DNA from: Massospora cicadina
Lineage: Eukaryota; Entomophthoromycota; Entomophthoromycetes; Entomophthorales; Entomophthoraceae
DNA length: 64,000 nt
Reading direction: 5' to 3'
NCBI GenBank assembly: GCA_022478985.1
Contig: JAKSZP010007889.1
Coordinates: forward strand, 62,001 to 126,000
In this document: piece by piece, positions 10,464 to 63,159 of the stretch
How positions within the stretch are numbered: position 1 is the first letter of the stretch
How the letters are laid out: the number at the start of each line of letters is the position of its first letter
The notes under the pieces: model-generated
What the model was told of the DNA's origin: nothing
The model's database searches: none
Seen by the model: only the letters and a program-made list of their open reading frames with translations
Translations under genes and position numbers: made by a program

Positions 10464-11023
10464 TCTCATGATTCTGATATGACTGGATGATAGCCCTAAG
10501 TCATTATGGCAGAATGGTTAAATCCCTAATCATGATTCTAAATTACAATTATTTGAGCTCCTTAGGATGATGCGATATTGGGTTAGAACGGATGGTTATT
10601 GGGCATATCCAAATAAGGTGATTAGGAGATGTCAATGCATTATGAGTAATTGGTAAATCGCCTCAAGCTAAGTGTTCGTGAATTTAATGAATGTAGACTA
10701 TGCTGGAACCAATGAGAATATGCTGAAATGAATAGTCTATGCAATAGGTTGGTATTGACTAAAGTCACTAACATATAAGTGAGATGGGAAGATTGAAGAA
10801 GGGGGATTGTTAATAGGAAAAAGTGAGTGGTGCAGAAGGGATCTACTGTTTTATATTAGAATAAATAAAGTAGTGTGGTGAAGCGATTGCTTCATATTTT
10901 ATTATAATCTTTAAGTTGTTTTGTGGGCTAATGATTTCCATATTGTCTGTCCATTGCTCAGTGGGCTTGACCCTGCGCATAAGCCTTATGGCATAACTCA
11001 ACTATTCCGCTGAATTTATAGTA
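10464..11023 (+). repeat. 5' LTR of element D
   Basis: Aligns with 26141-26704. It begins TCTCATGATTCTGATATGAC (TG lost) and ends AATTTATAGTA directly before the primer-binding site. It contains AATAAATAAAG near 10860, a plausible polyadenylation signal. Confidence 0.85.
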
Positions 11024-11042
11024 GTGGTGCTCACTACAGGGT
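11024..11042 (+). promoter_or_regulatory. Primer-binding site of element D
   Basis: GTGGTGCTCACTACAGGGT lies right after the 5' LTR. TGG pairs with the CCA of a tRNA 3' end. The same sequence is found next to the 5' LTR of elements C, E, F and, with one change, B. Confidence 0.75.
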
Positions 11043-11149
11043 GCCCATTGATCTACAATAAATATAAATATAATATAAAATTCCAGGCATTGGCTAATTC
11101 GCAACAGGCCTGCACCAAGGGGTAATCTTTCTGGCACATTAGGCCAACT

Positions 11150-12060
11150 GAATATGTGAAAATTATACTTGCCTTGGATGCTGTGCTCAAAAGGCAGGAT
11201 TATTTTTAAGGAGGTTTGTATTGATAAGCTGCTTCCATTTGATAGCGATTGGAACATATATGGGTTCTTTAAGTGATTTGAGTTGGCAGAAGAAGGAGCT
11301 TCAGATCAGCAAAAAGTGAAATTGTTAATATCCATTTTGGATTTTGAAAGCGCTGACCAAGTTACTTGCTATCTTTCAAACAGTTCTGTTACATACCATG
11401 AAGTGAAGGATAATGTGCTGCGCTTGTTTGGGGGTACTACAAAGATGTCACAGCGGAAGGCAGAGTTCTTGACCATTGTGTTTTAGAGTAATGAGACCCT
11501 CACCATGTTTTCTTATTGCTTTATGATGGAAGCTCACATTTTAATTGGGTCAGGGACTTTATCCAAATCTGACTTATGCATAGCAATGACCTTTGCAGTG
11601 AAGCCATACTACAATCTTTACAATGTCATGGCTCTGTATTTAGAGGACGACGTACACTTGCTTAAAATTGTTTTATCTTATGCCATCTATCTGCTACCTT
11701 TTCTCTGACCAATACAGAGCTGAAACTTAGTGCATCCGCTGCCAGACTTGCCTATTTGGAGAAATTATCCTGCCCAGTTCAGAGTCCATCCAATAACCCT
11801 CAGCCTTATTATCACTACGCGCCTCACCCTCGACTGAATTACCATTGGCAGTTCAATTATTGGTCTGGGCTTGTTTACACCAATTGACTCCAGTCCAACT
11901 TTCAATGTGGCCCATCTTACAACAATCAAGTACGCAGGCCTTATGGGGTCAATTGTTTTGAGTGTAGTTGCCCTGGGGCACCTGGCATGAGGTTGCCCCA
12001 ATCATCAGGTCCATTACCTACCACAGGACCAGTACAATCAGGGAAAAGTCAGAGTGGTAA
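11150..12060 (+). pseudogene. gag remnant of element D
   Basis: The frames 11283-11486 and 11505-11708 read like the capsid part of gag. The block DQVTCYLSNSSVTYHEVKDNVLRLFG, followed by KMSQRKAEF, is shared almost word for word with the gag of element E (23117-23428). A zinc knuckle remnant, CFECSCPG, lies near 11954-11995. It keeps the first two Cys but has lost the His and the last Cys of C-x2-C-x4-H-x4-C. Frameshifts and stops separate the pieces. Confidence 0.7.
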
Positions 12061-12399
12061 GAGATGGGACTCTCCATCTCCACTATTACAACCTCAAACG
12101 TTCATCTGAACCTATCCACGTACATTCAGCGGAAGTCTCTCAGTATGAGATGCATTCCTATATCAACAGCCAGTTGGAGGGGTGAATGTATTGACATGAG
12201 CGCAAACCAAGGACATGGCAGAAGAAGGACCCCAGGAGTAACTGAAGCCTTATGCCTGTCAGATGTTTTACTAAATTTCTACAGATAATCCAAATCCATC
12301 CTCTGATTGCCTCTCTTAAAAGGGGTAAACGCTGCCCTCCCTTTGGACACTATTGTTAAAGAGTACCCTGTAGTTGGTAGGGTATTATGAGCTTCCTGG

Positions 12400-12763
12400 G
12401 GAAAAGAGATCCGTTAAATGTCCACATATTAAATAGTCATATATTTCTTATTCTTAGTGTACATACTGTGACATTGTAATAGCAAAAACCTAAGTCCATG
12501 ATATAAGCAATATGGACTCTCCAGTTAACATAGTGTCCACAAAGTTTCTGGTGAAGTTGATATTAAAGCCTGATGTGGAACATCATATGATATATGGGAC
12601 TGCAGGCACAGAAAGCACGGTCTCTGAGGGAGTGTACATCATGCTACCCTTGCAGTTTGGGTCAATCGTCATTGTAGCCCCAGTAATAGAGCTATCAAAA
12701 AATAGCTATGAATTTCTGGTTGAACTGCTTTTATGTGACACTTTGGGGCTGTTGTTGATATGA
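12400..12763 (+). pseudogene. Aspartic protease remnant of element D (active site lost)
   Basis: The frame 12512-12763 aligns with the intact-looking protease of element E: PVNIVSTKF, then YGTAGTES and LQFGSIVIVAPVI. The catalytic DTGAP of E reads NMDSP-like here, so the active-site Asp-Thr-Gly is destroyed. Pol polyprotein processing would not be possible. Confidence 0.75.
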
Positions 12764-12920
12764 CAGTGGAGACCTTCGAAATTCTGGGGCAGCGGATTCC
12801 AATTTACTTCACCTCCAGCAGAGTACCGAAGGATCTGGTGCACATGGGTCATATCATCCTGACATACAGTGATGGGGTGATTCTAGTTCACTATCATCGA
12901 CTAAAGGACAAGACCTGGGC

Positions 12921-12934
12921 ATCTAGTACTAAAA
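12921..12934 (+). mobile_element. Micro-retroposon, copy 1 (14-nt 3' end fragment with 18-bp TSD)
   Basis: ATCTAGTACTAAAA sits between AAAGGACAAGACCTGGGC (12903-12920) and AAAGGACAAAACCTGGGC (12935-12952), which match at 17 of 18 bases. The inserted bases equal the 3' end of the 42-bp unit at 62661-62702. The matching stretch of element E (about 21710-21755, reverse strand) has only one copy of the target, i.e. an empty site. Confidence 0.6.
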
Positions 12935-13439
12935 AAAGGACAAAACCTGGGCCCTTCCCCAACAGATATATAAATGCCAAGGGCTGCCTATCAGAGAAGC
13001 TGGACTAATGTCCATCCCCTCTGGTCATCAAGTAATAGTGAACACTGAATTGGCGGTAGAAGTGCCAGAAAGACTCTATAGGGAAGTTATTGGTCCTTAT
13101 CAGCAATTATGTCTTGAGCATCACATGGCTCCAGGCATAATACTTCCGGCCATGGGGAGATCAAGGTTTTGTTAGAAAATCTACAGAACAAACCAATGCA
13201 ATTCTACAAACATAAAATAGTGGCCTATTTACACTTGGACTCAGTTGAGAAGGTCCTTCAGGTTCACGTTTTGGGTCACTGGATGAATTTGGTCTAGCCT
13301 TTGAACCACAGTTTGGCATAATGGTGGTGGTACTACGTTAAAATCTAATGAGGTTATTGGAAAAACAAAAAGATCTGGTGATAGTTTTATTTTAAAAGTA
13401 CAAGGAGATTTTCGCCATCAATGATCATAATTTAGGGTG

Positions 13440-14135
13440 CACTTGGGGCATGGTCCATCAAGTGGACACTGGGGATCATCCCCACACCAGATCTCGGCTT
13501 ATTGCCAGTCTAGGGCAGCTGAGGAAGTAGCAACTGAGGAGATTGAAAAGCTACTCGAACAAGGGATGCTTGAACCATCAAAGAGTCCATGGGCTTCGCC
13601 ATTATGATTGTAAAAAAGAAGGACGGCACCAACCACATAGTAATGGACTAACGGAAGCTCAATAGTATTACAAAAAAGGACTCATACCCCTTGATAAGGA
13701 TCAACAATGCTTTGGATCAGCTATGGGCGCCCATTATTTTTCAGCGATGGACTTGATATCAAGTTACTGCCAGATTGAGTTTCTTTCAGCGGAGCACAAG
13801 TGCGCCATAATCACATACAAGGGGTTTTTCCAATCAACCCATATGCCTCAAGGGCTATGTAACGCCCTGGCTACGTTCCAGCGGTCCATGGATACCATTC
13901 TTGGTAACCTGAAGCTGTCATGTGTCCTCATATACCTCAGCAACATCAATGTATTATCCTGCACGTTTTCTGAGCACCTTACCCATTTGGAGGAGGTATT
14001 CCGCCGATTGACTGAGGCCAACATCAAGATCAAGCCCCAGAAATGCCACCTTTTTAAAGACCAGCTGTAATATCTGGGATTTGTGGTAGACTCAAAGGGG
14101 CTAATACCACAGCTGTCCAAGGTGGAGGCCATCTG
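13440..14135 (+). pseudogene. Reverse transcriptase remnant of element D
   Basis: The main frame 13723-14070 shows HYFSAMDLISSYCQI, THMPQGLCNALATFQRSMD and CVLIYLSNINVL. This is the gypsy RT palm. The catalytic Y-L-D-D has become YLSN, so both metal-binding Asp residues of the box are gone. Upstream fragments in other frames match HRVDTGDHP and PWASP of element E. A stop at 14068-14070 is followed by more pol sequence in other frames. Confidence 0.85.
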
Positions 14136-14137
14136 TA

Positions 14138-14527
14138 ATGACGAAACTAACCAGCAATCTTGACATCCAGGTATTTATGGGGATGGTCAGTTACTACTGC
14201 CGCTTTATACCTAACTTTAGCTGTATTGGAGGTCCACTGTTTGAGGTACTAAAGAAGGATGAAATTTTTGAATGTACAGAATGCTGTCAACCCTCCTTTA
14301 ATACACTTTGTTCGGCGTTGATCAATGTGATAGTGGTACGCTATCTGAACTTTATTAATTAATTTATTGTAGAGAAGGATGTATCCCTTTTCGCTGTTGG
14401 GGCAGTTCTGTCCCAGAAAGATGATGAAGGGGAGGAGCACCCAGTTGCATACTGTAGTTTTAGCTTAAACTGTCATGAATTAAATTACACCGTGACTGAG
14501 TGGGAGTGCTTAGCAGTGATCTACGCT
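14138..14527 (+). pseudogene. RT connection and RNase H, first half (element D, split by element E)
   Basis: 14138-14362 reads VFMGMVSYYCRFIPNFSCIGGPLFEVL, the RT tail typical of gypsy. Around 14380-14527 the RNase H block runs FAVGAVLSQKDDEGEEHPVAYC to TEWECLAVIYA. It then stops dead at element E and continues at 24680 with YKQFRVYFHG. The two halves join exactly across E, apart from the target-site duplication. Confidence 0.85.
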
Positions 14528-14675
14528 GTTATAATTTTGGATGGTATCATTATAATCCACCATATTGTTTGTACACAGGTTGAACCCACTGAACAACAGA
14601 TACATGACTTGGGGATTGTTGGTCCTTTAATGCACTTGAGATATACTAAAAATAGGAGAAATTGCTCACTGTGGG

Positions 14676-15233
14676 GTGATAGTCCAAAACAACAAAAAAT
14701 TTAAAATCACAAATTCATCATCACACTTGCATGGTCGAGTCCTGGTAGCAACAATCACATGCCAAAATGAAATAATTTCGTTAGCATGTATCTACGCACC
14801 GTGCACTGCAACTGAGAGAAAAAAGATTGAAAAAATTTCTACTCTCACCCTCCCACCAGATATCATCATGTTAGGCGATTTCAACTGCTGGGATAACCCC
14901 AATACAGATCAATGGCCTAATCCCAGGGGATACCCACCTGGACACATTGAATATCGCACAATGAAGGCATCTTTTGGCTTACAGGATGCTCTTCCCCCCG
15001 ATTCACCAACCCTTCCCCACATGACAAGGCCCAACGTTTGCAAGGGACTGCTCATATCGATGAGTCATATTGACCACATCTTCATCCCACAATCCCACCA
15101 CTCAAGAATCTCCAAATTTACAACAAAAAAGGTCAATTTTTCTGATCACCAATTAGTTATGGTGCAGTTAGCGCCTACCCAATCCCACACACAGGTGTCG
15201 CCTTGGAGAAAGCTTCACCCAGAAAATATATAA
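14676..15233 (+). pseudogene. LINE 1 ORF2: AP-type endonuclease domain, 5' truncated
   Basis: The 185-codon frame lacks the N-terminal third of an apurinic/apyrimidinic-type endonuclease. It shows IYAPC, IIMLGDFNCW (the G-D-F-N motif with catalytic Asp and Asn), SHIDHIFIP and FSDHQLVMV (the S-D-H motif with the final catalytic Asp-His). This domain nicks the target DNA to prime reverse transcription. The frame ends at TAA 15231-15233; in-frame homology continues after the stop toward the RT, so the stop is a mutation. Confidence 0.85.
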
Positions 15234-15407
15234 TTGCCTGAGATATCTGACTGGGTTGAAAATAAGGCTACAAACCCAGAATTCACAGCCCCATTCACTT
15301 TGGATCCCATTGGAACATGGGAAAATTTCAAAAAAGATTTAATCAACAAAACCTGACATATTGCATCACGCAAGTACACCGCGGACACATCCACAATCAA
15401 GCGTACC

Positions 15408-16439
15408 TTGGAAGAACTAGACCACCTGGAAATAAATACTCTGAGATCTGACTATAGCCCTAATTGGGGACGCAAATGGGCAGAAATTTCAGCCCGACTT
15501 AACAATCTCATCTTTGAACACCAACACAGAATCAAAGTATCAAACAAAGGTAAGTTCATAAAGGAAGGCGAAACCTGTTTGACATACTTTTTCCACCAAT
15601 TTCACTCCCGCGGAAACCAGCCCGCGTGCACACAGGTCTGCAAGACCAATGGCACCGTGGCAACTGACCCTGAGGAGGTCAAGGCGGAAGTACACCGCTA
15701 TTACACCAAATTATATCGCGATATGCCACCAGATCCACAAAAAATTAAAGAATTTATTCAAACTGCCAAGATACAAAGTACACCACCAAATTACAATATA
15801 CTATCCCTTATTACATGGGAGGAGCTTTGGGAAACAATTTGCGGTGCACCACGTAGGAAATGCCCGGAGCCTGATGGGATACCCTACGAATTTTACAAAG
15901 GATATTACCAACAAATCGCCCCCCTCCTATTGGCGTCAATGAACCAGAGTTTGTTGGAAACACGCCTATTACCAGGAGGCCATGAATCCTACGTTATAAC
16001 CTTGTATAAAAAGTGTGACAAGTTGGACCTGAACAACTGGCACCCAATTGCACTCTCCAACACTGACACAAAAATTCTAACAAAAATTCTAGCAGCTAGA
16101 TTAGGCACAATTGCATCTGACGTCCTATCACCCAACCAGTTTGGGTTTATACCAGGGCGTTCAATCTGGAACAATATACACCCTGTTGCAAACATTTGCC
16201 AATCCAAAGCAACTGGTGCCCTAGTCTTCTTGGATCAGGAAAAGGCGTATGACCGTGTTAGCTGGCCATACCTAAAAGAATGTCTACATGCCTTCAAACT
16301 CCCACCAAGATTCATAAAATGGGCGATGCTCCTAACAGAATCTGCAACCATGGCTGTATGCGGCCCTGTATTCCTAACAAACAATATCAAACCACACAGA
16401 GGGCTCAAACAAGGGGATCCCCTCAGCCCACTGCTATAA
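15408..16439 (+). pseudogene. LINE 1 ORF2: reverse transcriptase domain
   Basis: This is a 343-codon frame with the LINE RT order: RKCPEPDGIPYEFYK, WHPIALSNTDTKILTKILAARL, SPNQFGFIPGRSIWNNI, ALVFLDQEKAYDRVSW and HRGLKQGDPLSPLL. It ends at a TAA (16437-16439) inside a conserved block and resumes at 16485-16766 with KKLAFADDCVAG, the F-A-D-D catalytic box. This is one of the less damaged coding regions in the window. Confidence 0.9.
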
Positions 16440-18037
16440 AATTTCAGCTTTGACCTGCTCCTCCGAGTAACTGACTCACGTCTCATGGGGATAACCGCAC
16501 AAGGACAACCAACAGTCAAGAAACTGGCCTTTGCAGATGACTGCGTAGCAGGTATAGCAAACAATGAAGATTCCCAACAGCTGGAACACACTCTAGAGGA
16601 ATACTCCAAGGTGAGCAATGCATCGCTCAACAAAAGGAAGACAGAAATCATCCTTTTAAGCAAATACATAAACAATTGGGCCACAACATCAGAACCTCAC
16701 ACCAACACTCGAAGAAAAGACCCAATTACTTTACCCTTTGCAACACCTCCCACCACCCCTGTCTGACACCTTGGAATCTGGCTAGAATCAGGGGGATATG
16801 CTAATGAGACAATGGAAAGTAACCTGTTAAACGGGTATCCAAACGCGTCACCTCCCTCAAGGGAAGAACCCCAGGACTAACAGGACGAGTTACAGTTGCT
16901 AACTCGCTCATCCTCCCAATACTGTGGTACCAGGCCTATGCGATAGCCTTCTCACCTACCTTTATAACCTCAATTCGCGCGCTTATCCAGGGCTGGCTGT
17001 GGCCTGGCTCTCACCCTCCAATAAGGATGGAAACACTATTTGTCCCACGCTCAAGCGGAGGCATGGGACTAATAGATTTTGAGAGCCACGCCAACCGCAT
17101 CCTGGGTACCTGGATAAAGGAAATCCTTGCTCCAGACCTCCCACAACAACATTGGTCCAGAGCAGCACGGACTAACTTTTCACAGGCGCTCAAATTAACC
17201 AACCCATATAGTCCACCCAGACTACTTTCATACCTTGCCAAGCACCCTACTGCAACAGGTCCTCATGGAACCTCCCCTCATTTCAAACATATCCTCTCAA
17301 CTATCCGCCGTATGGGATGGACCGTAGAGAACATGGGTACTATACAGGGAAGGGGGACCCAGCCCCCAATTCAAATTAAGAAACCCAGAAAACCACCCCC
17401 AGAGGGATATGCTCGCAACAACCCCAAGCATAGATAGGATAGAATACCTAGATATGCTGGTCATTCCCTACTATTTAACCACACAGAAAGCAAAAAGAAA
17501 ATGACACACCACCCACTCCTACAGCCAAGGATAAGAGCAAACGCCTGGCACTGTTTGAGAAGGACCTATAGGATGGCGGACCGCTCCAACTCCCTCCACA
17601 AAACATGTGCAGTATGTGGAGGGGAGGGATCCCTACATCACCGCCTAGAAACATTCCCCCCAACCAAAGCTATATGGCAGGAAGTCGCACGCCTGCTCAA
17701 GATTCAAAACGAACAGGAATTCTCGATATCAAAGAGTATCTTCACGCTCCAGATTGAGTCACCAATCCCATCTACCCTCCGCTCCCTAATAATACCCATT
17801 GCAATGTGGACAATACACACAATTTCATTAGATGCGTTCAAGGGCACGGTCCCAACCATTCATGGGATTATTAACAGATTCCATGTCCATTTACTAGAGC
17901 ACTTCCAAGCCTGGCTCTATGGATATATGAGACCAAGACAAAAAGCGCTCATAGAATCATGGTTCCCACTCTGGTTCCTCCACACAGACCCTTTCCTTCA
18001 CACCTGCTCCATAGCAGGGGAAACCCCCTCGGAGTAG
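16440..18037 (+). pseudogene. LINE 1 ORF2: FADD box, thumb and C-terminal zinc-knuckle region
   Basis: Pieces at 16485-16766, 17027-17437 and 17501-18037 follow the order seen in LINE 2. The last has CAVCGGEGSLHHRLETFPP, matching CVMCGQYRTLFHHLEKCPP of LINE 2. The final zinc-binding Cys is replaced by Phe in this copy. The 3' UTR is 18038-18187. Confidence 0.8.
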
Positions 18038-18628
18038 TGCACCAACCCCCCATACCTGGCAGTCTCGCTGGCAACAGGGGTAACTTGAGTACCCTGGGGT
18101 GCCCAATTTTTATATTTCTTAGTTATTTTCTTAGTTTCACGTATATTTGGTAATGTCTGTCCCCTGGTTGGCTTACCTCAGTTAAATAAAAATAGGAGAA
18201 ATTGCCCCAACGACTCTTTATTTACTTTTTAATAAATAAAGCGACCTTTCACTATTTAGTTCTCTCTCTACTAATTTGCAACCTAATCTTCTCACTCACC
18301 CATCTCGCTTATATACAGTGGCTTTGGATGATACCACTCTCATATCTTGGCCTATTATATTCCACTAAGATTCTCTGGTTTCGGCTTGTTATTCTTTAGA
18401 TCTCTATCAAACTAATTGGAGGTGATCTAATTTGTATTCATCAAATATTGACATCACCTTATTTTCTTATTGCCTTAGTTAGGGGCGATCTAATATTAAC
18501 CCATTATATCCCAATATCGCCTCATCTCGAGGCACTTAAAGAATCTTAACTGATAGCATGTTTTGTAATTTGTTCTATCCGCCCTATCTGTTCCAAGCTT
18601 ATTGTCCAGTAATATAAGAATCATAACA

Positions 18629-19330
18629 TTACCCGTTCCTTGACTGGATGATAAGGGTACTATTGCTTATATGGTCAGAGGAACTTTGCATGCACTTGGT
18701 TAATGATCCGACCAATTGAAGGGTCTTTGATGGTATAAGCGTCAACACCATTTTTCTCTATAACTATGAAGAGCCATACCAAATACTGGCCAGCTTTCTT
18801 TTTACCTGAACCCATGTTGGTCATGGAAGAGAACCATATTACCCTCTTTGAACTGCGTCAACCCACTATGACATACCTGATTGCAGCTTGATTTTTGATC
18901 TTCTTGGCTAAGCTGAAGTAATATGCTTCAGCTTAAAATTTGATCAAAGCGTTTACAAGGTTAGTCAAATAGTGGTGGGGTTCCATTCTGCTGGTGTCTT
19001 CTACACACGAATAAAGTAATGCTGGAAGAGCCAGGTGTCGGCTGTATAGTAGTTGGAAGGGCTCTTCCCTGTGGCGGAATGGTAACTAATATTATAGTTA
19101 AACACGGCAGTGGAAAGGAGGGAGCTCAATTAGAAGGTCGTCCATTACTAATTTTTGTAGAATGTTCACCAAAGTCACATTCACCCGTTTGACTATTCCA
19201 TTGGGATTAGTGTGATATGGAGTCATCAAAATCTCATGGTTACCCATAAGCTCGTTTAGTTTGGGGAGAATGTGCGAGGTGAAGTTGGTTCCATTTTACA
19301 GTAAGAATGAACTGAGGACAGCCATGTCAC
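18629..19330 (-). pseudogene. Integrase C-terminal part and 3' end of element E
   Basis: On the - strand, fragments read SLLSTAVFNYNISYHSATGKSPSNYY and further heavily frameshifted blocks, as in the integrase tail of D. A purine tract (AAGGAACGGGTAA on the - strand) ends at the 3' LTR boundary 18628/18629. Confidence 0.6.
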
Positions 19331-19700
19331 TGAACAATACATTCTGTTATGAACTTGGCCACTGTGATTGCCCCCAAATCCCATATTGCCCGTGCTTCAA
19401 CCCACCAGGTCAAGAGATAGATAGCCACCAGAATGTACTTACACCAGTTAGCTCCTGTTTGTAAGGGACCAACGACATCAAGGGAAACCGTATGCCAAGC
19501 AAAATGTGGTTTTACTACCCGGTACAAAGTCAAATGGCAAAATGGCTTCTCCACTTGGCACTGATGGTAACAGCAAATGGTTTTAAGCACATCAAAGCTC
19601 ATGATTTCTTTTTAGTACTGAGGGCGCAACAACTCCATTGTCTTGTGCACAACACCATGTTTGACTGCCTTGTGGGTGCTCATAACAATTTCTGGCCATG
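19327..19700 (-). pseudogene. Integrase zinc-binding and N-core remnant of element E
   Basis: The frame 19602-19327 shows CYHQCQVEKPF (C-x2-C of the HHCC domain) and SLDVVGPLQTG, which carries the first Asp of the DDE triad. The second Asp region is destroyed by frameshift. Confidence 0.8.
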
Positions 19701-19810
19701 CTGAGGGTCACAGGAAATTCACCGTAGAATCGCTGATCTGCTTGTACAGTTCCCATTCCATGGGAAGGTAGTCATTCACATCTCATTAATGCCTTGATCA
19801 CTTGGGGCGG

Positions 19811-20164
19811 TTAATCATCATATATTCCGCTAAGCATATTATCATACATCACATCACTGAGGTCCACCATCATGGCAACTTTTGGCAATAGAGATAAATA
19901 GTCAGCATTCTGATGCTTTACTCTTGGGCAGTGAAGGATCTCGAAGTAATAAGCCTTCATATTAAGATCCCATCGAGCCAAACGCCCTTCAGACTCATTG
20001 AGGTTCTGCAACCAGCGTAATGACGCGTAATCTGTTACAAATTTAAACTTTACCCCATGCAAGTAGACTCTGAATTGCTTATATGCATAGATCACCACTA
20101 AGCACTCCTGCTCAGTCATGGTATAATTACGCTCATGGCATTTCATACTTTGACTGCAGTACAT
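19811..20164 (-). pseudogene. RNase H remnant of element E
   Basis: The 117-codon frame reads NYTMTEQECLVVIYAYKQFRV, then FVTDYASLRWLQNL and GRLARWDL. This is the central and C-terminal RNase H plus tether region. The Asp of FVTDYASL (usual V-x-T-D-H) is retained. Confidence 0.85.
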
Positions 20165-20559
20165 TATGGGGTGCTCCTCTCACTCGTCATTTTTTTGAGA
20201 AAGTACCGCCCCACCAGTGGAAAGGGACTCATCCATCTGAACAATAAACTCCCTATCAAATTTTGGATAGCATAATACTGGTGCATTAGTCAGCGCCGTA
20301 CAAAGTGTATCAAAGGCATATTGATTAAGTTCCATCCATTCAAACACAACATTCTTTTTTAACAGCTCAAATAGAGGCCCAAATACAGCTAAAGTTAGGG
20401 ATGAAGCGTTGGTAATAACTGGCCATTCCCAAAAATATCAGTATGTTGCATTTACTATTAGGGGTAATCATTTTATGGATGGCCTCCACCTTAGCCAACT
20501 GTGGTTCAGCCCCTTAGAGTCTACCACAAACCCCAGGTATTCCAACTGATTTTTGAAGA

Positions 20560-21210
20560 AGTTCTTTTTCAAGGCTTAACTTTGATGTTTGCCTCAGCGA
20601 GTTGGCGGATTACTACTTCTAGATGATCAAGGTGCTCCAAAAAGGTTCGAGAGAAAACATTAATATCAATGAGGTATATGAGTACACATGACAGCTTCAA
20701 GTCGCTGAGAATAGTGTTCATGGCTCACTGAAACGTAGCCGGGGCGTTACACAGCCCTTAAGGCATCCAAGTTGGTTGGAAAAGGCCTTTGGATGTGATT
20801 ATGGCACATTTTTCCTGTTCCACCGCAGGTAGCTCAATTTGCCAGTAACTTAATATCAAGTCCATCGCTGAAAAATAATGGGCTCCCCATAGCTGATCCA
20901 AAGCATTTTTGATACTTGGCAAGGGGTACAAGTCCTTTTTTGTAATACTATTGAGCTTCTGGTAGTCTATTACTATTTGGTTGGTGCCGTCCTTCCATTT
21001 TGCAATCAGAATAGGTGAGGCCCATGGTCTCTTTAATGGTTCAAGCATCCCTTGCTCCAGCAACTTGTCAATTTTCTCAGTGACAATGTTTTCTACTGTC
21101 CTTGATTGGTGGATCAACTGAGACCTTATGGGGGGATGATCTCTTGTGTCCACTCGATGGACCTTCTGAACACACCCTAAATCATGATCGTCAACAGTGA
21201 AATTCAACAT
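20560..21210 (-). pseudogene. Reverse transcriptase remnant of element E
   Basis: The frame 21210-20758 contains PWASPILIAKWKDGTNQIVI, YQKLNSITKKDLYPLPSI, HYFSAMDLILSYWQIE and KGLFQPTWMP. It continues after a stop with GLCNAPATFQ and CVLIYLIDINVFS. The catalytic Y-L-D-D reads YLID, so one Asp is lost. The CAA or CGA codon expected at the stop after WMP is now TAA. Confidence 0.88.
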
Positions 21211-21366
21211 GTAATTTTGAAATAAAGCTATTGCTTGGTCTTTTTTTCTTCCAATAACCCTATTAAATTACTCCATGGTACCACTGGCATTACACCAGCT
21301 GGTGCCTCAACTGATAGACCAAATTAGTCTAATGACTTAAAATCATGAACCTGAAGGACCTCTTTT

Positions 21367-21412
21367 TTTTAGTACTAGATGGTCCCAACCCAAGGGGGGG
21401 ATTCATCGATGT
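21367..21412 (-). mobile_element. Micro-retroposon, copy 2 (46 nt, 16-bp TSD)
   Basis: On the - strand the insert begins ACATCGATGAATCCCC and ends GGGACCATCTAGTACTAAAA. The + strand duplication CTGAAGGACCTCTTTT lies at 21351-21366 and 21413-21428, a perfect 16 bp. The related site in element D (GAAGGTCCTTCAGG near 13250) has a single copy and no insert. It differs from copy 3 mainly by two extra C in the C run. Confidence 0.75.
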
Positions 21413-21922
21413 CTGAAGGACCTCTTTTATTGGAGCCAAATGTAAATATATTCCTATTTGGTGTCAGCGGATTTGCATTAGTTTGTTCTGGAGATTTTCT
21501 AAAAAAACCTTAATCTCCCCATGGCCTAAAAGTATAATCCCTGGAGCCACATGAGGCTCAAACTGTTTTGATGATAGAGCCCAATGACTTCCCCATATAG
21601 CTTGACAGGCACTTCCACCTCTAACTTGGTGTTCACTAAAACTTGATGTCCAAAAGGAATAGATATGGGCCCTGCAGCTTAAAGAGGTATCCCTTAATAT
21701 TCATATATCTGCTGGGGAAGGGTCTAATTCTTATTTTTTAGGCAAAAAAGTGAACTGGCATCACCCCATCACTATATGCAAGGTTGATGTGGCTCATATG
21801 CACTGGATCCTTCATCACTCCACTAGAGGTGAATTAAATTGGGATCCGGTGTTCTCAAAATGGCAAGGGTCTCCTCCATCATATTAACAGCAGCCCCAAA
21901 ATGTCACAAAAAATGGTTCTAA

Positions 21923-22867
21923 TTAGCAAGTCGTAGTTTTTTTTGGTAGGACAATCGCTGGAGCTACAATGACAATGGACCCAAAATACAGAGGTAGCGC
22001 ACTGTATGCTCCCTCAGAGATGTTGCTTTCTGCTCCAGCAGTTCCATACACCATTTGATGGTCCACATCAGGCTTTAACGTCAACTTCGCCATCAACTTA
22101 GTGGAAACTATGTTGACTGGAGCACCAGTATCTATTATAGCGTATCTATTTTTTGCTACTAAAATATTACAGTATGTACACTCAGAATAAGAAAGATATT
22201 GACTGTTTAATATGTGGACATTTATGGGATCTCTCTTTTTTATAAGACTCATTATCCCCTCACCAACTTTTGGATATTCTTTTACAATGGCATCTACCAG
22301 AAGAGAAACGTGTACTCCTTTCAGAGTTGGTGCATACGCAGCAGAATCCAGATTTTCTGAGGAATCTTGATCAAGCATTTGACAGGCATAAGGCTTCAGT
22401 TGCTCTGGCGATCCTTCTTCCACCACGGCCTTGGCTTGAGCTCGTGTCACTACGTTCACTCCTCCAACTGGCTGCTGGTATAAAATTCCATCATTGTACT
22501 GAGGGACTTCCGCAGGATATACTACTATTGATTCAGGGACGTTTTGGGTTGGAATCGCAGGGGTAGAGAGTCCCATCTTTACTCTGCTCCATCTTTTACC
22601 TGGTAGTATTATCTTGGTGTATGTAGTGCACATGGCGGTTATGGCAGAATTTTGCCAAGTGACAAGGGCGGCCGCATTCATAGCAGCTAATCCCATAAGT
22701 TTCACATCCCTGATTTTCATAAGAGGGTCCAGGTCAGAAAGTTTGGGGTTGTTCAGCATAACCAGGGACAGGTTGGTAAGATGATTGCTGACGTTTGGTG
22801 TAGCTAGGTCCTGGTTGGTAGATAGGTTGCTGACGGTTTTTGTAACCAGTCCCTGGACAATAATCAA
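21923..22867 (-). pseudogene. gag C-terminus and aspartic protease of element E (DTG intact)
   Basis: This is the longest - strand frame, 314 codons. The protease is near its C-terminus: YAIIDTGAPVNIVS (DTG codons at 22128-22142), then YGTAGAES, LYFGSIVIVAPAI. DTGAP is the active-site loop of retroviral-type aspartic proteases. A zinc knuckle, CYECGRPCHLAKFC, complete as C-x2-C-x4-H-x4-C, lies at 22644-22685 in a different frame. A frameshift therefore separates the two. Confidence 0.85.
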
Positions 22868-23039
22868 ACTGTTGAGTATAATTTGGCGAAGGATGAGGTG
22901 CAGAGTTATAGTAAGGTCAAGGGTTGCTAAGCAGAAAGTGAGTCGGATGAGAGTATTTTCCTGAATAATAGGGTACAGTAGAGGCGATAGTCTTCCATTC
23001 CATATTTGGCGGCGGAAAGTTAGGGGATATGCGATGCAA

Positions 23040-24110
23040 AAAACTGTACAATTTTGAGCAGTGGAATGTCATCAACCAGAAGTGGAGAAATGACATTGTG
23101 AAGCTTCAGTATGGCTTCACCTGTAGGTCATGGCGATGCACACATCAGCTTCCACTAAGTATCCTGCCACAACCAGCATGTGAGCTTTTATCATAAATTT
23201 ATCAGTGAACTCCAGGAGAGACTTGTTTTGGCGGAATCTAATCGTTAAGAATTCTGCTTTCCGCTGTGACATCTTTGAGGTGCCCCAAAACAGGCAAAAC
23301 ATGGTATCTTTTACATCCCTATAGGTAACATATCTACTTGGGAGGTAACAGGTGAATTGATCGGCACTCCCAACATCCAAGGCAGATATCAACAGTTTAG
23401 CCTTCCATCTATCATAGGCGCCTTCCACTGCAAATTCAAACCGTTTAAAGAAGCCATGGATATTCCCGTTTCAATCAAATGAAGGTAGTTTGTTGATATT
23501 AACCTCCTCATCCTGTTCACGTCTTTTTTTATGCCATACTGAGAAATGGGTCGAGATTTAAAAGCAGTTTCCTGATGAGAAGCTGGACCAGCGGAAGTTT
23601 GGGATGTCCACTGCATCAGGGGTAGCATGGCCTTCTGCCATGGGCAGCACCGCCATCACTTGAGGGAATTGGTGCACCAATTCATATTCATATTTAGTGC
23701 TATCATCCTGGGTGTAGTAGCTCTAACCAGCGTCATATTTCTCCTCATATGATGTCCCCCTTGTTGTTCACCCGCTTCCCAGTGAGAAGACTGAGAGGCT
23801 CTGGTCAATTTCTGCTCTGCACACTGCAGCCGTTTGGTGTTATCATCCAAACAATTAGTGGGTTCCTTGCTTTGTTGTACCAGAAGTTTCATTTGGCTAA
23901 ACGTGCTATCAAGCTGTTGTATGACAGCATTTCGTTCTTGAAGAAGTTCATCCTGTTTTTTGAGCACTGCGTCTAAGGTGAGTTTGAGTTCTTTATACTC
24001 AGCTGGGTGGTGTTTCATGAAGATTCCCAGCAACGCAGGCTTTATTAGACATAGCTGGCGACTGGAGATTAGGAGTACTTAATGGCTGGTCAATGGGCCC
24101 CCTGTAGTGA
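23040..24110 (-). pseudogene. gag remnant of element E
   Basis: There are three frames: 24033-23656, 23628-23389 and 23428-23117. The first has a helical, coiled-coil-like stretch (KKQDELLQERNAVIQQLDS). The last has the capsid block DQFTCYLPSRYVTYRDVKD and KMSQRKAEFL, shared with D. A start ATG may be near 24055 (MSNKACVAGNL), followed by a frameshift. Confidence 0.75.
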
Positions 24111-24117
24111 GCACCAC

Positions 24118-24679
24118 TGTTACAATTTTGGTCGGTATCCTTAGGATCCAATATATTGTTTGCATAGGTCAAACCCACTGAACAACAGACAGATGATGTG
24201 GGGACCATTGGTCCTTTGAACGCACTTGAAAATATACTAAAAATGGGAGCAATTTCTCCAACGACTCTTTATTTACTTTTTAATAAATATAGTGACCTTT
24301 CGCTGTTCCATTCTCTCTCTAATAATAACAACCTAACCTTCTCACTCATTTATCTTGCTTAAATACAGCGTCTTCAGATGATACCGCTCTCATTGCTTGA
24401 ACTATTCTATTCCGCTGATTCTACTCAGTTTAGCTTGTTACTCTTTAGCTATCTTTTACCCTAATTGGAGGCGATCTAAGTTGTATCCATCAAATATTGA
24501 CATTGCCTTATCACCTTATCGACTTAATTAGAGGCAATCTTTTAATAACCCATTATATCCCAATATCACCTCATTTCAAAGCACTCAAATAATTATAACT
24601 GATATCATGTTTGGTGGATTTGTTCCAACCCACCCTAGCTGTTCCAAGCTCATCGTCCACTCATATTATAAATGTGACA
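24118..24679 (-). repeat. 5' LTR of element E
   Basis: Starts TGTTACAATTTTGG and ends AATGTGACA on the + strand. It is uninterrupted and so preserves the empty LINE 1 insertion site near 24236-24256. The primer-binding site lies directly to its left (about 24100-24117). Confidence 0.88.
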
Positions 24680-24930
24680 TATGCTTATAAGCAATTCAGG
24701 GTATATTTTCATGGAGTCAAGTTCAAAGTTTTTATGAATCATGCCTCATTACACTGGTTGCAGAACCTCAAAAAGCCTGAGGGGCGTCTATCCCAATAGG
24801 CACTTAAATTGCAGGCTTACAATTTTGATATTCTTCACCAACCTGGAGCCAAACACCAAAATGCAGACTGATTATCAAGCTTACCAACTTTTTGCAGATA
24901 TGGTGGATCTCGGTGATGTTTATGTACAAT
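24680..24930 (+). pseudogene. RNase H, second half (element D)
   Basis: Continues the frame cut at 14527: YKQFRVYFHGVKFKVFMNHASLHWLQNL, then EGRLSQ, a stop, and ALKLQAYNF in changing frames. The catalytic D of the V-x-x-D-H motif has become N (FMNHASL). Confidence 0.85.
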
Positions 24931-24969
24931 AAAATGATTAGTGGCCAATACTACTATAAACCACCACAA

Positions 24970-25720
24970 GTGATAAAGGTGCTTATGACATGCAAGCCAA
25001 TACCTTCCAGCGGAATGGGGAATTATACAAGTGGATTGGCAATTCTACGGTGAACTTCCCACAACCCTCAGCACAGCCTGGTATCAGATGAGCGTACATA
25101 AGGCAGTTGGACATGGTGGAGTGCGCAAGGCAATGGAATTGTTGCGGCCTCAGTATTACTGGGAAATCATGAACTTTGATGTGCTTGAAATTATCTCCTA
25201 CTGCCACCAGTGCCAAGTGGAAAAGACGTTCCACCAGAAGACCTTGTACCAGTTAGAAAAACTGCATTTTGCTGGCATATGGTTTCCTTGATGTTGTTGG
25301 CCCTCTGCTAATGGGAGCTAAGCAGTCCAAGTACATTTTGGTTGAGATCAACAACTTGACCAGATGTGTTGAAGTAAGGGTGATACAAAAATTAGGGGAG
25401 GTCACCATGGCCAAGTATAATGTAATGTATTATCCAGCGACATGTCTCCCTCAGTTTCTCCTTACCAATAATGGAGCTAACTTCACTTCCCACATTCTTC
25501 TGAAGCTGAATGAGCTTATGGCCATCTGCGGGGTTCTAACAACCCCATACCACCCTGAGTCTAATGGGATGGTTGAGCGAGTGAATGAGAATTTAGTGAA
25601 CATACTCCATAAACTTGTAGCTGATCAACCTTCAGACTGGAGTTCCCTCCTGTCCACCGCCATCTTCACATATAACATCAACTAACATTCCGCCATGAAG
25701 AAGAGTCTCTTTCAATTACT
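24970..25720 (+). pseudogene. Integrase remnant of element D
   Basis: The frame 25031-25291 has the HHCC zinc domain: VHKAVGHGG and SYCHQCQVEK. The frame 25269-25685 has LDVVGPLLMG (first Asp), LTNNGANF (second Asp changed to Asn) and SNGMVERVN (Glu present). So one catalytic residue of the DDE triad is lost and the frame is broken at about 25280. Confidence 0.88.
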
Positions 25721-26140
25721 GTATGAACAACACCTGCTCTTTCTGGCACTGCTCTATGCCTGCATAGAAGATACCAGCGGAATGGACCCACAACGTTATT
25801 TGATGACTCTAGCTGACACACTAATCAAATTGCAAACTGGAGCGTACTCATTCAGTTTATAAAGAAGATAAAGAATCAGGTTGCTGATCAGGTACGTCAT
25901 AGCATGCTAGCCCAGTTCAAAGATGGTACATGGTTCTATTCCATAATCAACATAGGTTCTGATGGAAACAAAATTTTGGCCATTATCTGAATTGGTCCAT
26001 TTAAAATTTATTTAGAAAACAGGTTTTGATGCCTATACTATCAAGAACCCTGCTAGCAGTCAGATTATCAACAAAGTACACATGAAGTTCCTCAGAGCAT
26101 TTAAGCAATAGGAGCATTATTGTCCAATTAAGGGGGGTAA

Positions 26141-26704
26141 TGTCATGATTCTGATATGACTGAATGATAAGCTCTAAGTTGTTATGGAAGAAATGGTAGA
26201 ATCTTCCAATCATGATTATGAGTTTCAATAATTCAAGAACCTTAGAATGAGGCAGTATTGATTTAAAATGGATGGTTATTGGATCACTTCCAAATAAAGC
26301 AATTAGGAGATATCAATGCACAACAAATAATTGGTAAATCGCCTCAAACTAGGCGATCATGAATTTAATGAATGTAGACTCTTCTGGAACCAATGAGAAA
26401 ATGGTAGAATGAATATTCTAAGCAAAAGGGTTAGTATTGACCAAAGTCACTAACATATAAGTGAGATGGGAAGATTGAAAAAGGGTAAAAGTTAATAGGA
26501 ATAAGTGAGAGGAGCAGAAGGGATCATATGTTCTATATTAAAATAAATAAAGTAGAGTGTCTGAAGCAAATGCGCATATTTTATTGTAATCTTTACGTTG
26601 TTTTGTGGGCTGAGATCTCCATATTGTCTGTCCATTGCTCAGCTGGCTTGACCCTGCACAAAAACCTTATATATTATCTTAAGAATTCTGTCAGATTTAT
26701 AACA
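26141..26704 (+). repeat. 3' LTR of element D
   Basis: Starts TGTCATGATTCTGATATGAC, ends CAGATTTATAACA, and is followed by the duplication GGGTT. A purine tract (AGGGGGGTAA) precedes it. Confidence 0.9.
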
Positions 26705-26709
26705 GGGTT

Positions 26710-27550
26710 AGTTTACTGCACAGGTTAATTTTAAGCTTAATAAAAGCACTAGCTGTATGGCGACAACTAGTAGGTTGAGTCATAACAATAAGTGTAAAAA
26801 AATCCACTCTGGCAAACTGTATTTGAGAAAATCAACTAGGTACTTTTATTCCCTATAAACTTCAATTTAGAAGTAAATATAATAATTTTATAGCAGTTAA
26901 TTCTGTATTTTATTAGAGAATGCTAGGAGTTCTTATAGGGAGAAGGTGGACAACTTTTTCATATAATTTCTGAAAGTCAACTGATTAGTCTCTTGAAACT
27001 TCTAACCCTTAGGATTAACTTCTGATGATGGCAAATACCTTCACCTTAGTTAATCATCAGCATTGTACCCTTTCACAGATCAGTAACCATCCCCTTGTGT
27101 TAGGAACCATACACAAATGGGCTGGGGCCATGTTACTTGATTACAACTACTAGCTACTGATGAAACAATAGTTTAAATGCTTCAGTAGCTTCATTAAATG
27201 ACCCTACTTGTTCAATGCCTCTGCTTGGTGATTTACAATGACAATCTGACTATCAGCAATCAAGCCCTCATCAAATTACCTAATTAACATTGTCAGGGAT
27301 GATTCCTGAAGAACTATTAATCAAAACCATCGTCAGAATATATCCTTTAGTTAATTATAATTAGTAATTAAGTTGGGGGATGACCCCCAACATAATATTA
27401 ATTGAAACCAAACATCGGATTATATCCTTTAGTTAATTATGACTAATGTTTTAGTTGCAACCATTGCCAAACAATATTTTTGCTTTTAACAACCTTCAAA
27501 ATTCTAATCTGTAAGTGAGATGGATAATGTGGTCAACCGAATTTCCAACA
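26710..27550 (-). repeat. 3' LTR of element C, major part
   Basis: Colinear with 39380-40140; both end AATTTCCAACA. The first 16 bp of this LTR lie at 10448-10463, beyond element D. It is slightly longer than the other copy because of a small insertion near 27360-27400. Confidence 0.85.
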
Positions 27551-52631: not shown

Positions 52632-52918
52632 TTTTATTTAACTGAGGTAAGCTGACAAGGGGACAGGCATTACTGAAAGAAAGAAATGACATGAAACCTG
52701 AACAGGGTCAACTCTGTCAAAGAAAGTTTTTCCACCTCCTGATCAGGACTCAAATTTTTCTGGTTACGTCATGGGTAAGGTTTTTATGTTATTAGACCTA
52801 CTAACCGCCAATAGCTTCCTTTGGATGGCACCCCAATTGATGTGCGAAGGGTGGGAATTGAACCCACAACCTTCAGGTTGGTAGCTGTACACCATTACCA
52901 ACTCACCTTCCACCCCCA
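52632..52918 (-). mobile_element. SINE family 1, copy 1, tRNA-derived head and LINE-like tail, 15-bp TSD
   Basis: A 287-bp insert lies between GGTTCTGTGCAGCTA (52617-52631) and GGTTCTATGCAGCTA (52919-52933), 14 of 15 matching. On the - strand the head has GAGTTGGTAATGG (A box region) and B box GGTTCAATTCC (52854-52864). The body has CTTACCCATGACGTAACC. The tail CTTACCTCAGTTAAATAAAA is nearly identical to the 3' end of LINE 1 (18165-18192). It is about 80% or more similar to 62853-63144. Confidence 0.88.
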
Positions 52919-56831: not shown

Positions 56832-56858
56832 GAAGGAGTACGTGAACAGGAGCCACAA

Positions 56859-57806
56859 GTGCTACCTGGATTCTTTGACTCTAGTTATGAGGGTGAAGTA
56901 ACTATCCTACTGGGGAACATCACCACTCAACCTATCCAAATTAAGAAAGGACAAGTTGTGGCATGCACGAAACTAACCAATTGTGGTACCATCAAGTCAG
57001 TACACGCTGTTGGAGGATTAGACAAATTGGGACTTGCTGACTTTAGAGAGGAACAACGGAAAGAACTAAATGATTTATTGGAAGAGTTTGAAGATATTTT
57101 CAGCCAAGGACCAAACAATAATGGTCTGTGTAAAGGAGAGATACACCGTATGGATACAGGGCCAGCTATATCTTTCAAATTAAAGCCATACTACCAATCA
57201 AAGATGGAAGAGGAGGTAATCACTAAGGAGCTTCAACAACTTACAGACGCTGGCTTGTTGAGGCCCTCAAAGAGTCCATGGGCAATGCAACTCCTGTTGG
57301 TATGAAAGAAAGATGGCTCGCACAGGGTGGTTATGGACTACCATCACTTGAATGAAATTGCGAAAAAAGATTCTTACCCTCTCCCAAGAATTGATGACGC
57401 CTTGAAACGGTTGGGCGGTTCAAAGTATTTTTCAACAATGGACCTAGATAGTGGGTACTGGAAGATGGAACTGTCACCAAAAGACCAGGAAAAGTGCGCC
57501 TTGGTCAGCATCCAAGGCTTGTTTGAACCAACCAGGATGCCACAAGGGCTGTGCAATGCCCTGGCAACCTTTCAACGCGCCATGGACCGAATATTTGCAG
57601 AACTGAAAATGAAGAGTGTTTTAATAAATCTGGATGATATAACTGTATTTAGTAAAACTTTCAGAGAGCATATTGAGCACCTTCGAGAGGTGTTCACATG
57701 GTTGAGAGAATCAAATCTTAAACTGAAATGGAGCAAGTGCACCTTTCTCAAGAAGCAACTCGAGTTTTTGGGACATGAGATCAGTGCACAGGGGATTCGA
57801 TCTTAA
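56859..57806 (+). pseudogene. Reverse transcriptase of element F
   Basis: 56859-57305 ends SKSPWAMQLLLV then TGA where the family has V-R/K-K-K-D-G. 57327-57806 continues MDYHHLNEIAKKDSYPLPRI, KYFSTMDLDSGYWKMEL, RMPQGLCNALATFQRAMD and SVLINLDDITVFSKTF. The catalytic box is NLDD, with both Asp kept and Tyr replaced by Asn. The frame ends at TAA 57804-57806 (R-S-stop-E-G-K-V, probably CAA originally). Confidence 0.92.
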
Positions 57807-62660: not shown

Positions 62661-62702
62661 CATCGATGAATCCCCCTTGGGTTGGGACCATCTAGTACTA
62701 AA
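62661..62702 (+). mobile_element. Micro-retroposon, copy 3 (42 nt, 17-bp perfect TSD)
   Basis: The insert starts CATCGATGAATCCCCC and ends GGGACCATCTAGTACTAAA, between AATATGTAAGTTTAGGA at 62644-62660 and 62703-62719. It has the same 5' start (within two bases) and 3' end as copy 2 at 21367-21412. It carries no promoter boxes and is too short to encode anything. Confidence 0.8.
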
Positions 62703-62852
62703 AATATGTAAGTTTAGGAATTCATCCTATCTCATTTGCCAATAAAGCACTGACAGGAAGATTAATACTAAATTTTTGGGTTGTAAACTCAGCGTTATTA
62801 TGGGAAATTGATTGGTCTTAAAAATATAAAATTGATAAAGAATTTGAGCCTT

Positions 62853-63144
62853 ATAAGGGAGTGGAAGGCGAGTTGTTAGGCATATGGCTACCAACTTGAA
62901 GGTTGCGGGTTCAATTCCCACCCTTTGAAAATTAATTAAGGTGCCAGTCAAAGAGAGCTATTGACGATTAGTAAGTCTAAAAACACGAAAACCTTACCCA
63001 TGACGTAACCAAAAAAATCCAAGTCCCAATCCAGAGGTGTAAAACTTTCTTTGATGAAGTTGACCCTGCCCAGGTTTCATGTCAATACTTTCTTTCTCTC
63101 ATTTGTAATGTCTGTCCCCTGGTTGGCTTGCCTTGAATTAATAA
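62853..63144 (+). mobile_element. SINE family 1, copy 2
   Basis: The head AGTGGAAGGCGAGTTGTTAGG is tRNA-like and the B box is GGTTCAATTCC (62908-62918). The body has CTTACCCATGACGTAACC and the tail TGTCCCCTGGTTGGCTTGCC then TTGAATTAATAAA. The short duplication AATTTGAGCCTT (62841-62852) and AATTTGGGCCTT (63145-63156) flanks it. It is colinear with 52918-52632 on the other strand. Confidence 0.85.
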
Positions 63145-63159
63145 AATTTGGGCCTTTTA

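What the first reader, a model, noticed from the sequence alone, without database searches (positions are those of the whole stretch)
62661..62702. A 42-bp micro-retroposon with target-site duplications, present three times
Seen: the same short unit (5' CATCGATGAATCCCCC, 3' GGGACCATCTAGTACTAAA) lies at 62661-62702 and, inverted, at 21367-21412. Its last 14 nt alone lie at 12921-12934. Each insert sits between direct repeats of 17 (perfect), 16 (perfect) and 18 (one mismatch) bp. Two full copies start at the same base within two positions, which argues against random 5' truncation of a longer element. Two of the sites are empty in the sister gypsy copy (near 13250 and 21710-21755). TSDs of this size with an A-ending tail fit LINE-mediated target-primed insertion, yet the unit is far shorter than any SINE known to me and has no pol III boxes.
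Basis: partly seen in the sequence, partly recalled or inferred. Interest (0 to 1): 0.88.

Follow-up and report, generated by a model that had tools for sequence, protein, structure and literature searches.

The report
LINE leaves tiny hairpin-sized copies
The short repeat is the very last stretch of a 6.4-kb jumping gene (an L1-like LINE), which in this genome seems to have left far more scars of 8 to 43 letters than long copies, and these scars record letter by letter where its copying machine stops.

Summary
In detail: three inserts at the stated places, with duplications of 17, 16 and 18 bp and two empty sister sites. The reading changes once the 1.47-Gb genome is searched. The unit is the 3' end of a 6.4-kb L1-like LINE, just downstream of AATAAA. 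Its last 11 nt plus 5 A occur 33,786 times. Of the 100 places listed, 9 are LINE ends and 91 stand alone; 85 of the 91 have clear target-site duplications. Those 85 inserts (A-run excluded) measure 8-24 nt (64), 27-28 nt (2) or 36-43 nt (19). The 36-43 nt class is the complete 3' hairpin, with a sharp 5' end: A at -1 in 48 of 48 copies of one sample, LINE base at -2 in 15 of 48 (15.7 expected); 18 of 19 agree in a second sample. Of 19 LINE-borne copies followed upstream, 12 begin at the common 5' end 6.4 kb away. So target-primed reverse transcription by this LINE often ends inside its own 3' hairpin, or at one base just beyond it. The 42-bp unit is the complete-hairpin product, the 14-nt copy a shorter one. 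The sharp end most likely marks the 5' end of a short RNA fragment (inferred).

The parts
62661..62702 (+). complete-hairpin LINE 3'-tail insert, 42 nt
   Evidence: same 5' end as the hairpin-only copies read elsewhere in the genome
62644..62660 (.). 5' target-site duplication, 17 bp
   Evidence: perfect match to 62703-62719
62703..62719 (.). 3' target-site duplication, 17 bp
21367..21412 (-). complete-hairpin LINE 3'-tail insert, 46 nt, inside a gypsy element
21351..21366 (.). target-site duplication, 16 bp perfect
21413..21428 (.). target-site duplication, 16 bp perfect
12921..12934 (+). partial LINE 3'-tail insert, 14 nt (ATCTAGTACT + AAAA)
   Evidence: belongs to the 8-24 nt class (64 of 85)
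12903..12920 (.). target-site duplication, 18 bp, one mismatch
12935..12952 (.). target-site duplication, 18 bp, one mismatch
13250..13268 (+). empty sister site of the 21367-21412 insert
   Evidence: no gap across the junction
21720..21749 (-). empty sister site of the 12921-12934 insert (diverged)
14667..18186 (+). another LINE family with its own 3' tail; comparison family
   Evidence: RT match 4.7e-20 and an endonuclease match below its cut-off (E 0.0008); 18-bp TSD read by eye

Best explanation
The unit is a product of target-primed reverse transcription (TPRT) by an L1-like LINE whose RNA ends in a small hairpin followed by UAGUACU and A's. Shown: the unit is the 3' terminus of a 6.4-kb LINE; stand-alone copies nearly all carry TSDs; their lengths fall into partial hairpin (8-24 nt) and complete hairpin (36-43 nt), while most LINE-borne copies examined are full length; the complete-hairpin class starts, with few exceptions, at one base, the last A of AATAAA. 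Inferred: the LINE enzyme nicks, primes on the A tail, often stops while copying the 3' arm of the hairpin, and the stub is joined to the target. Copies that clear the hairpin either run to the 5' end of the full RNA or stop at the fixed base. That fixed base is most likely the physical 5' end of a short 3' RNA fragment, for example one left when 5'-to-3' decay is halted by the hairpin or the protein bound to it. This last step is the least certain (about 0.5).
For: Counts in the genome: 33,786 for the last 11 nt + 5 A, 10,168 for the last 21 nt + 5 A, 6,725 for the 5' 16-mer of the hairpin, 2,207 with AATAAA attached, i.e. LINE-borne; reversed-pattern controls 0 except 2. All 100 listed places classified: 9 LINE-borne (by eye), 91 other; 85 of 91 with TSD score 10 or more; lengths 8-24: 64, 27-28: 2, 36-43: 19, over 43: 0. 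In the first 53 of these places, 44 of 48 non-LINE places had a TSD against 0 of 48 with flanks of different loci paired. 5'-anchored sample, 68 of the 100 listed places: 48 hairpin-only, 20 LINE-borne; 46 of 48 with TSD 10 or more. Sharp end: -1 is A in 48 of 48; -2 to -7 match the LINE no more often than background. That sample needs CATCG and so cannot see starts further in; the 3'-anchored sample can, and there 18 of 19 complete copies have the A and 1 (L116) starts a few bases inside. 19 of the 20 LINE-borne copies followed 7.5 kb upstream: 12 start at the common 5' end about 6.4 kb away. LINE proteins: endonuclease, RT, closest solved relative L1 ORF2 protein.
Against: The hairpin is not more stable than shuffled sequence (z 0.3 to -0.9), so structure as cause is plausible, not proven. 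No RNA data exist here. Copy numbers are not insertion rates: selection or deletion may remove long copies faster. The 3' sample is limited to exact matches of 11 nt + 5 A on contigs C1-C7. The 8-24 nt ends are spread over many positions rather than at one pause. A short-RNA template does not by itself explain the partial class. 6 of 91 non-LINE places had no clear TSD. A variant (TCTTGGG) was seen in 2 of 48 hairpin-only and 0 of 20 LINE-borne units, which could hint at a separate source.
Confidence: 0.82

Rival explanations
1. The fixed 5' end of the 36-43 nt class is a programmed stop on full-length LINE RNA: the enzyme halts at the AAUAAA box because a cleavage/polyadenylation factor sits there, or because it lets go of the RNA once its recognition hairpin has been copied.
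For: The end coincides with the last A of AATAAA. LINE-borne and hairpin-only copies share the C-run spread and the TCAGG variant, so they may come from one RNA population. Partial products fit an enzyme that stops early.
Against: No spill-over to -2, and 12 of 19 copies that go beyond it begin at the common 5' end; this looks more like a template end. Two copies (L002 by eye, L087) start within one base of each other about 460 nt upstream, with no AATAAA seen there.
Confidence: 0.33
2. The hairpin RNA is an independent micro-SINE: a separate small RNA gene copied in trans by the LINE.
For: Fixed 5' end; about 4,500 exact hairpin-only copies (6,725 minus 2,207), twice the LINE-borne number; a TCTTGGG variant in 2 of 48 hairpin-only and 0 of 20 LINE-borne units.
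Against: C-run spread and the TCAGG variant are alike in both classes (2 of 20 and 5 of 48). Flanks of stand-alone copies look unrelated by eye; no promoter search was made. No tRNA gene or Rfam match in the window.
Confidence: 0.1
3. Ordinary random 5' truncation of a LINE.
For: 5' truncation is a well known result of LINE integration (passages of PMC4245944); the partial class is spread over many positions; 3 of the 19 followed LINE-borne copies (L070, L078, L087) start at other points.
Against: 0 of 85 scored stand-alone inserts longer than 43 nt; a sharp 5' end in 48 of 48 and 18 of 19; 12 of 19 LINE-borne copies begin at the common 5' end.
Confidence: 0.05
4. A DNA transposon or MITE remnant, or chance repeats.
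For: The unit contains a short palindrome (CATCGATG).
Against: TSDs of variable length 11-23 bp, A-ended 3' side, one-sided 5' variation, null scans.
Confidence: 0.01

Closest known systems
5'-truncated LINE (L1-clade) insertions
   Same: 3' end of a LINE, A-ended, TSDs mostly 14-18 bp (13-15 bp peak for the L1 clade in passages of PMC4245944).
   Different: Lengths of 8-43 nt dominate the sample, one class has a sharp start, and no scored stand-alone insert lies between 44 nt and the few truncated LINE copies.
Stringent-type LINE 3'-tail stem-loops (ZfL2-1, ZfL2-2, UnaL2; PMC4176376, abstract and passages)
   Same: Terminal hairpin followed by a short tail; for the comparison family here the tail is shared by LINE and SINE.
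   Different: Recognition of the hairpin was not tested here; there the hairpin is a recognition element, whereas here it is itself a frequent complete product.
SINEs with LINE-derived tails (here the ~290-bp tRNA-like SINE at 52632-52917 and 62857-63147)
   Same: Moved by a LINE through a 3' tail.
   Different: The unit has no recognised pol III head and is just the tail of its own LINE.
Recurrent-breakpoint RNA fragments retrocopied by L1 (U3 snoRNA fragments, PMC13174262, passages)
   Same: A repeated end that its authors explain by a specific RNA cleavage.
   Different: There the fragment joins a LINE-1 chimera; here it would be the LINE's own 3' fragment.

Membership tests
LINE (L1-like) retrocopy | 3' end identical to that of a LINE encoding endonuclease and RT | tested here: met
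LINE (L1-like) retrocopy | target-site duplications about 10-20 bp | tested here: met
   85 of 91 non-LINE places with score 10 or more; null 0 of 48
LINE (L1-like) retrocopy | A-ended 3' side and a common nick motif | tested here: met
   A-run in every place by choice of pattern. With the 85 TSDs aligned on their first non-A base: A at -1 in 80 and at -2 in 73 (partly forced by that alignment), G at 0 in 50, A at +1 in 58
randomly 5'-truncated LINE | 5' ends spread along the element | tested here: not met
   no scored stand-alone insert over 43 nt of 85; sharp end in 48 of 48 and 18 of 19. Within 8-24 nt the ends are spread
SINE | own pol III head (tRNA, 7SL or 5S) and length about 80-500 nt | tested here: not met
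   42-46 nt; no tRNA (ARAGORN) and no Rfam match at gathering score in the window; A/B boxes not scanned separately
SINE | transcribed from its own gene | not testable with these tools
   no RNA data
stringent-type LINE tail | 3' stem-loop present | tested here: inconclusive
   GAUG/CAUC and CCC/GGG stem predicted, not more stable than shuffles
stringent-type LINE tail | stem-loop required and bound by ORF2 protein | not testable with these tools
   needs retrotransposition and binding assays

The most novel reading that the evidence does not exclude
A discrete RNA of about 41 nt plus A tail, made from the 3' end of a LINE and consisting of little but the hairpin that the LINE enzyme needs, is retroposed more often than the full-length LINE RNA. 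It would be a retroposon reduced to its recognition element, and the genome would hold a base-by-base record of aborted and completed TPRT events.
Probability: 0.45. Interest if true: 0.8.

Novelty: new variant of a known kind. Interest (0 to 1): 0.64.

Why it matters
LINE insertions under 50 bp fall below the floor of at least one published scan (50 bp to 10 kb in PMC2912911, passages), so how often TPRT starts and fails in nature is poorly known. If the sample of 100 holds for all 33,786 places, one LINE has left tens of thousands of such scars, most with a TSD. This makes early termination, hairpin unwinding and RNA-fragment templating measurable from genome sequence alone. Such inserts would also be a large, hidden source of roughly 25-65 bp insertions (tail plus TSD) in host DNA.

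Tried and rejected
Rejected: other known RNA origin (no Rfam match at gathering score in the window); MITE; SINE with pol III head (no tRNA gene). The insert at 27339-27440 looked like a fourth case but is a diverged 82-bp tandem duplication. My first idea, that the unit is a cousin of the window's own LINE/SINE tail, rests on weak similarity (17 of 5000 shuffles and 21 of 5000 random window pieces reach the score against the LINE tail; 299 and 106 of 5000 shuffles against the two SINE tails) and is not needed now. No exact 19-mer match in viral or bacterial/archaeal contig collections. A scan of the 356 kb held at that time (loci overlap, so less unique sequence; score 14 or more, insert 6-120 nt) found, besides 77 unit-like pairs, 39 others: mostly overlapping reports of tandem repeats, a variant of the unit (L030), what look like paired units (L048), the still shorter case in L126 (TACT + A7), and one 15-bp perfect pair around 77 bp in L070 (7084-7190) that I did not explain. 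Note: L100 is listed as 36 nt because a TSD extension with mismatches was preferred; by eye it starts at ACATCG. Six of the 91 non-LINE places were left out of the length count: L102, L118, L122, L126 (no TSD found) and L012, L162 (score 9). Microhomology in the 8-24 nt class: overlap in 19 of 64, extra bases in 17 of 64; no background was computed, so I draw nothing from it. Not obtained: a 15-nt pattern count, the TCTAGTACTAAAAAAA count and the longer sister-tail count. Papers: search listings only (titles and abstract starts; one search returned none) showed no report of dominant LINE copies of 8-43 nt; a string search for pieces of the unit found no paper. Passages only were read of PMC4176376, PMC3747384, PMC4245944, PMC2912911 and PMC13174262. 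That 5'-to-3' exonucleases can be halted before an RNA structure is recalled, not looked up.

Full report
Observation. In the window the three units are three of only six TSD-like pairs around a short insert, and Markov null sequences do not reach their scores. The related gypsy copy lacks both of the inserts that can be checked there and aligns without a gap at the duplicated site.

Genome search. The window lies in an assembly of 1.47 Gb in 16,968 contigs. The 5' 16-mer of the unit occurs 6,725 times and its 3' 16-mer 33,786 times; reversed controls gave 0 and 2. With the last 21 nt and 5 A there are 10,168. With AATAAA attached at the 5' side there are 2,207, and with ten more LINE bases 1,733 (substitutions such as that in L013 also lower this count).

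Two classes with the complete hairpin. I read 68 of the 100 listed places. Twenty have a common upstream sequence and belong to a LINE; 48 stand alone. Of the 48, 46 have a TSD with score 10 or more. Immediately before CATCGATG all 48 have A; at the next base 15 of 48 have the LINE base against 15.7 expected. This sample needs CATCG and cannot show starts further in. In the 3'-anchored sample, which has no such need, 18 of 19 complete copies have the A before CAT and one (L116) starts a few bases inside. So the 5' end is fixed, with few exceptions, to one base, the last A of the LINE's AATAAA. In 13 of the 47 copies with a TSD score of 8 or more, one or two further bases stand between TSD and that A; full-length LINE copies also show extra bases at their 5' end (by eye).

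The LINE. Nineteen of the 20 LINE-borne copies were followed 7.5 kb upstream; L002, already seen to be truncated in its 3-kb locus, was left out. Twelve begin at a common 5' end about 6.4 kb upstream (11 by an exact TSD, L072 by eye). Three (L074, L075, L082) stay similar to 6,018-6,046 and are offset against the others by about 375 bp, which I read as an internal deletion; no usable TSD was found for them (the repeat reported for L082 runs on into its flanks). L070 and L078 begin at 6,050 and 5,761 by TSD. L087 begins at 460; L002 begins within one base of the same point by eye. L086 is cut by the contig end. L069 has an APE-type endonuclease match, an RT match and a zf-RVT match just under its cut-off; by sequence its RT and endonuclease are nearest to L1 ORF2 proteins among solved structures. 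The reading frame of L069 is split over several ORFs; I only describe this.

Length spectrum. All 100 listed places were obtained and classified (LINE-borne ones by eye, sequences). Nine are LINE-borne. Of the other 91, 85 have TSD score 10 or more. Their inserts, without the A-run, are 8-24 nt in 64, 27-28 nt in 2 and 36-43 nt in 19; none is longer. TSDs are 11-23 bp, mostly 14-18. Aligned on the first non-A base of the TSD, G stands there in 50 of 85 and A next in 58 of 85, after A's that are partly forced by the alignment. In the first 53 places, 44 of 48 non-LINE places had a TSD against 0 of 48 when flanks of different loci were paired. L126 also holds an insert of TACT + seven A between 16-bp repeats, so shorter products exist and 33,786 is a lower bound for the family.

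Hairpin. The last ~41 nt fold as GAUG/CAUC with an upper CCC/GGG stem, then UAGUACU and A's. The 8-24 nt class ends in the tail and 3' arm, the 36-43 nt class at or just beyond the 5' arm, and almost nothing in between (2 of 85). The fold is not more stable than shuffles, so this match of positions is suggestive only.

Comparison. A second LINE/SINE tail in the same genome (CTTACCTCAGTTAAATAAA, 3,006 exact copies) was sampled at 8 of the first 10 listed places. All 8 carry the tail past its hairpin, and 5 clearly share sequence further upstream (by eye). TSDs were not tested there, and this 19-nt pattern cannot see copies shorter than itself. Among focal places whose insert reaches 19 nt, 33 stand alone with a TSD and 9 are LINE-borne. 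So ultrashort copies may be special to the focal family, on a small sample.

Mechanism. TPRT by the LINE explains TSDs, A-ended side and the shared 3' end. Early stops in the hairpin's 3' arm explain the 8-24 nt class. For the fixed end at about 41 nt two models remain: a short RNA fragment whose 5' end lies there, or a programmed stop on the full RNA. Sharpness and the mostly full-length outcome of copies that go beyond favour the fragment; the C-run spread and TCAGG variant common to both classes fit both; the TCTTGGG variant seen only in hairpin-only copies (2 of 48 against 0 of 20) favours neither. A recurrent end of retrocopied RNA fragments by cleavage has been proposed for U3 in L1 chimeras (PMC13174262, passages).

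Limits. Copy numbers are not rates; samples come from the first contigs listed and from exact matches; no RNA evidence; organism unnamed.

Noticed in passing
52632-52917 (-) and 62857-63147 (+): A ~290-bp SINE with a tRNA-like head (box A/B-like motifs recognised by eye) whose last ~40 nt match the 3' end of the LINE at 14667-18186: a LINE-SINE pair.
   Followed up: partly
56832-57305 (+): A dUTPase match (PF00692, E 6.7e-5) just before the RT of a gypsy element.
   Followed up: no
27276-27440: Diverged 82-bp tandem duplication that mimics a TSD-flanked insert.
   Followed up: yes
L002 and L087: Two LINE copies in different places start within one base of each other (CCAGCACCG), about 460 nt upstream of the unit: a second recurrent 5' end.
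   Followed up: partly
L024: A complete hairpin unit sits at nearly the same target as a partial unit, with overlapping duplications.
   Followed up: no
L001-L068, C-run of the unit: The C-run varies from 5 to 9 in both LINE-borne and hairpin-only copies, as if slippage were frequent.
   Followed up: partly
L070:7084-7190: A 15-bp perfect direct repeat around a 77-bp insert that is not the unit; perhaps another retroposon.
   Followed up: no
10466-26670: Nested elements: gypsy LTR pair 10466-10989/26143-26670 containing a LINE (14667-18186) and another gypsy with LTRs 18187-18615/24238-24666.
   Followed up: partly
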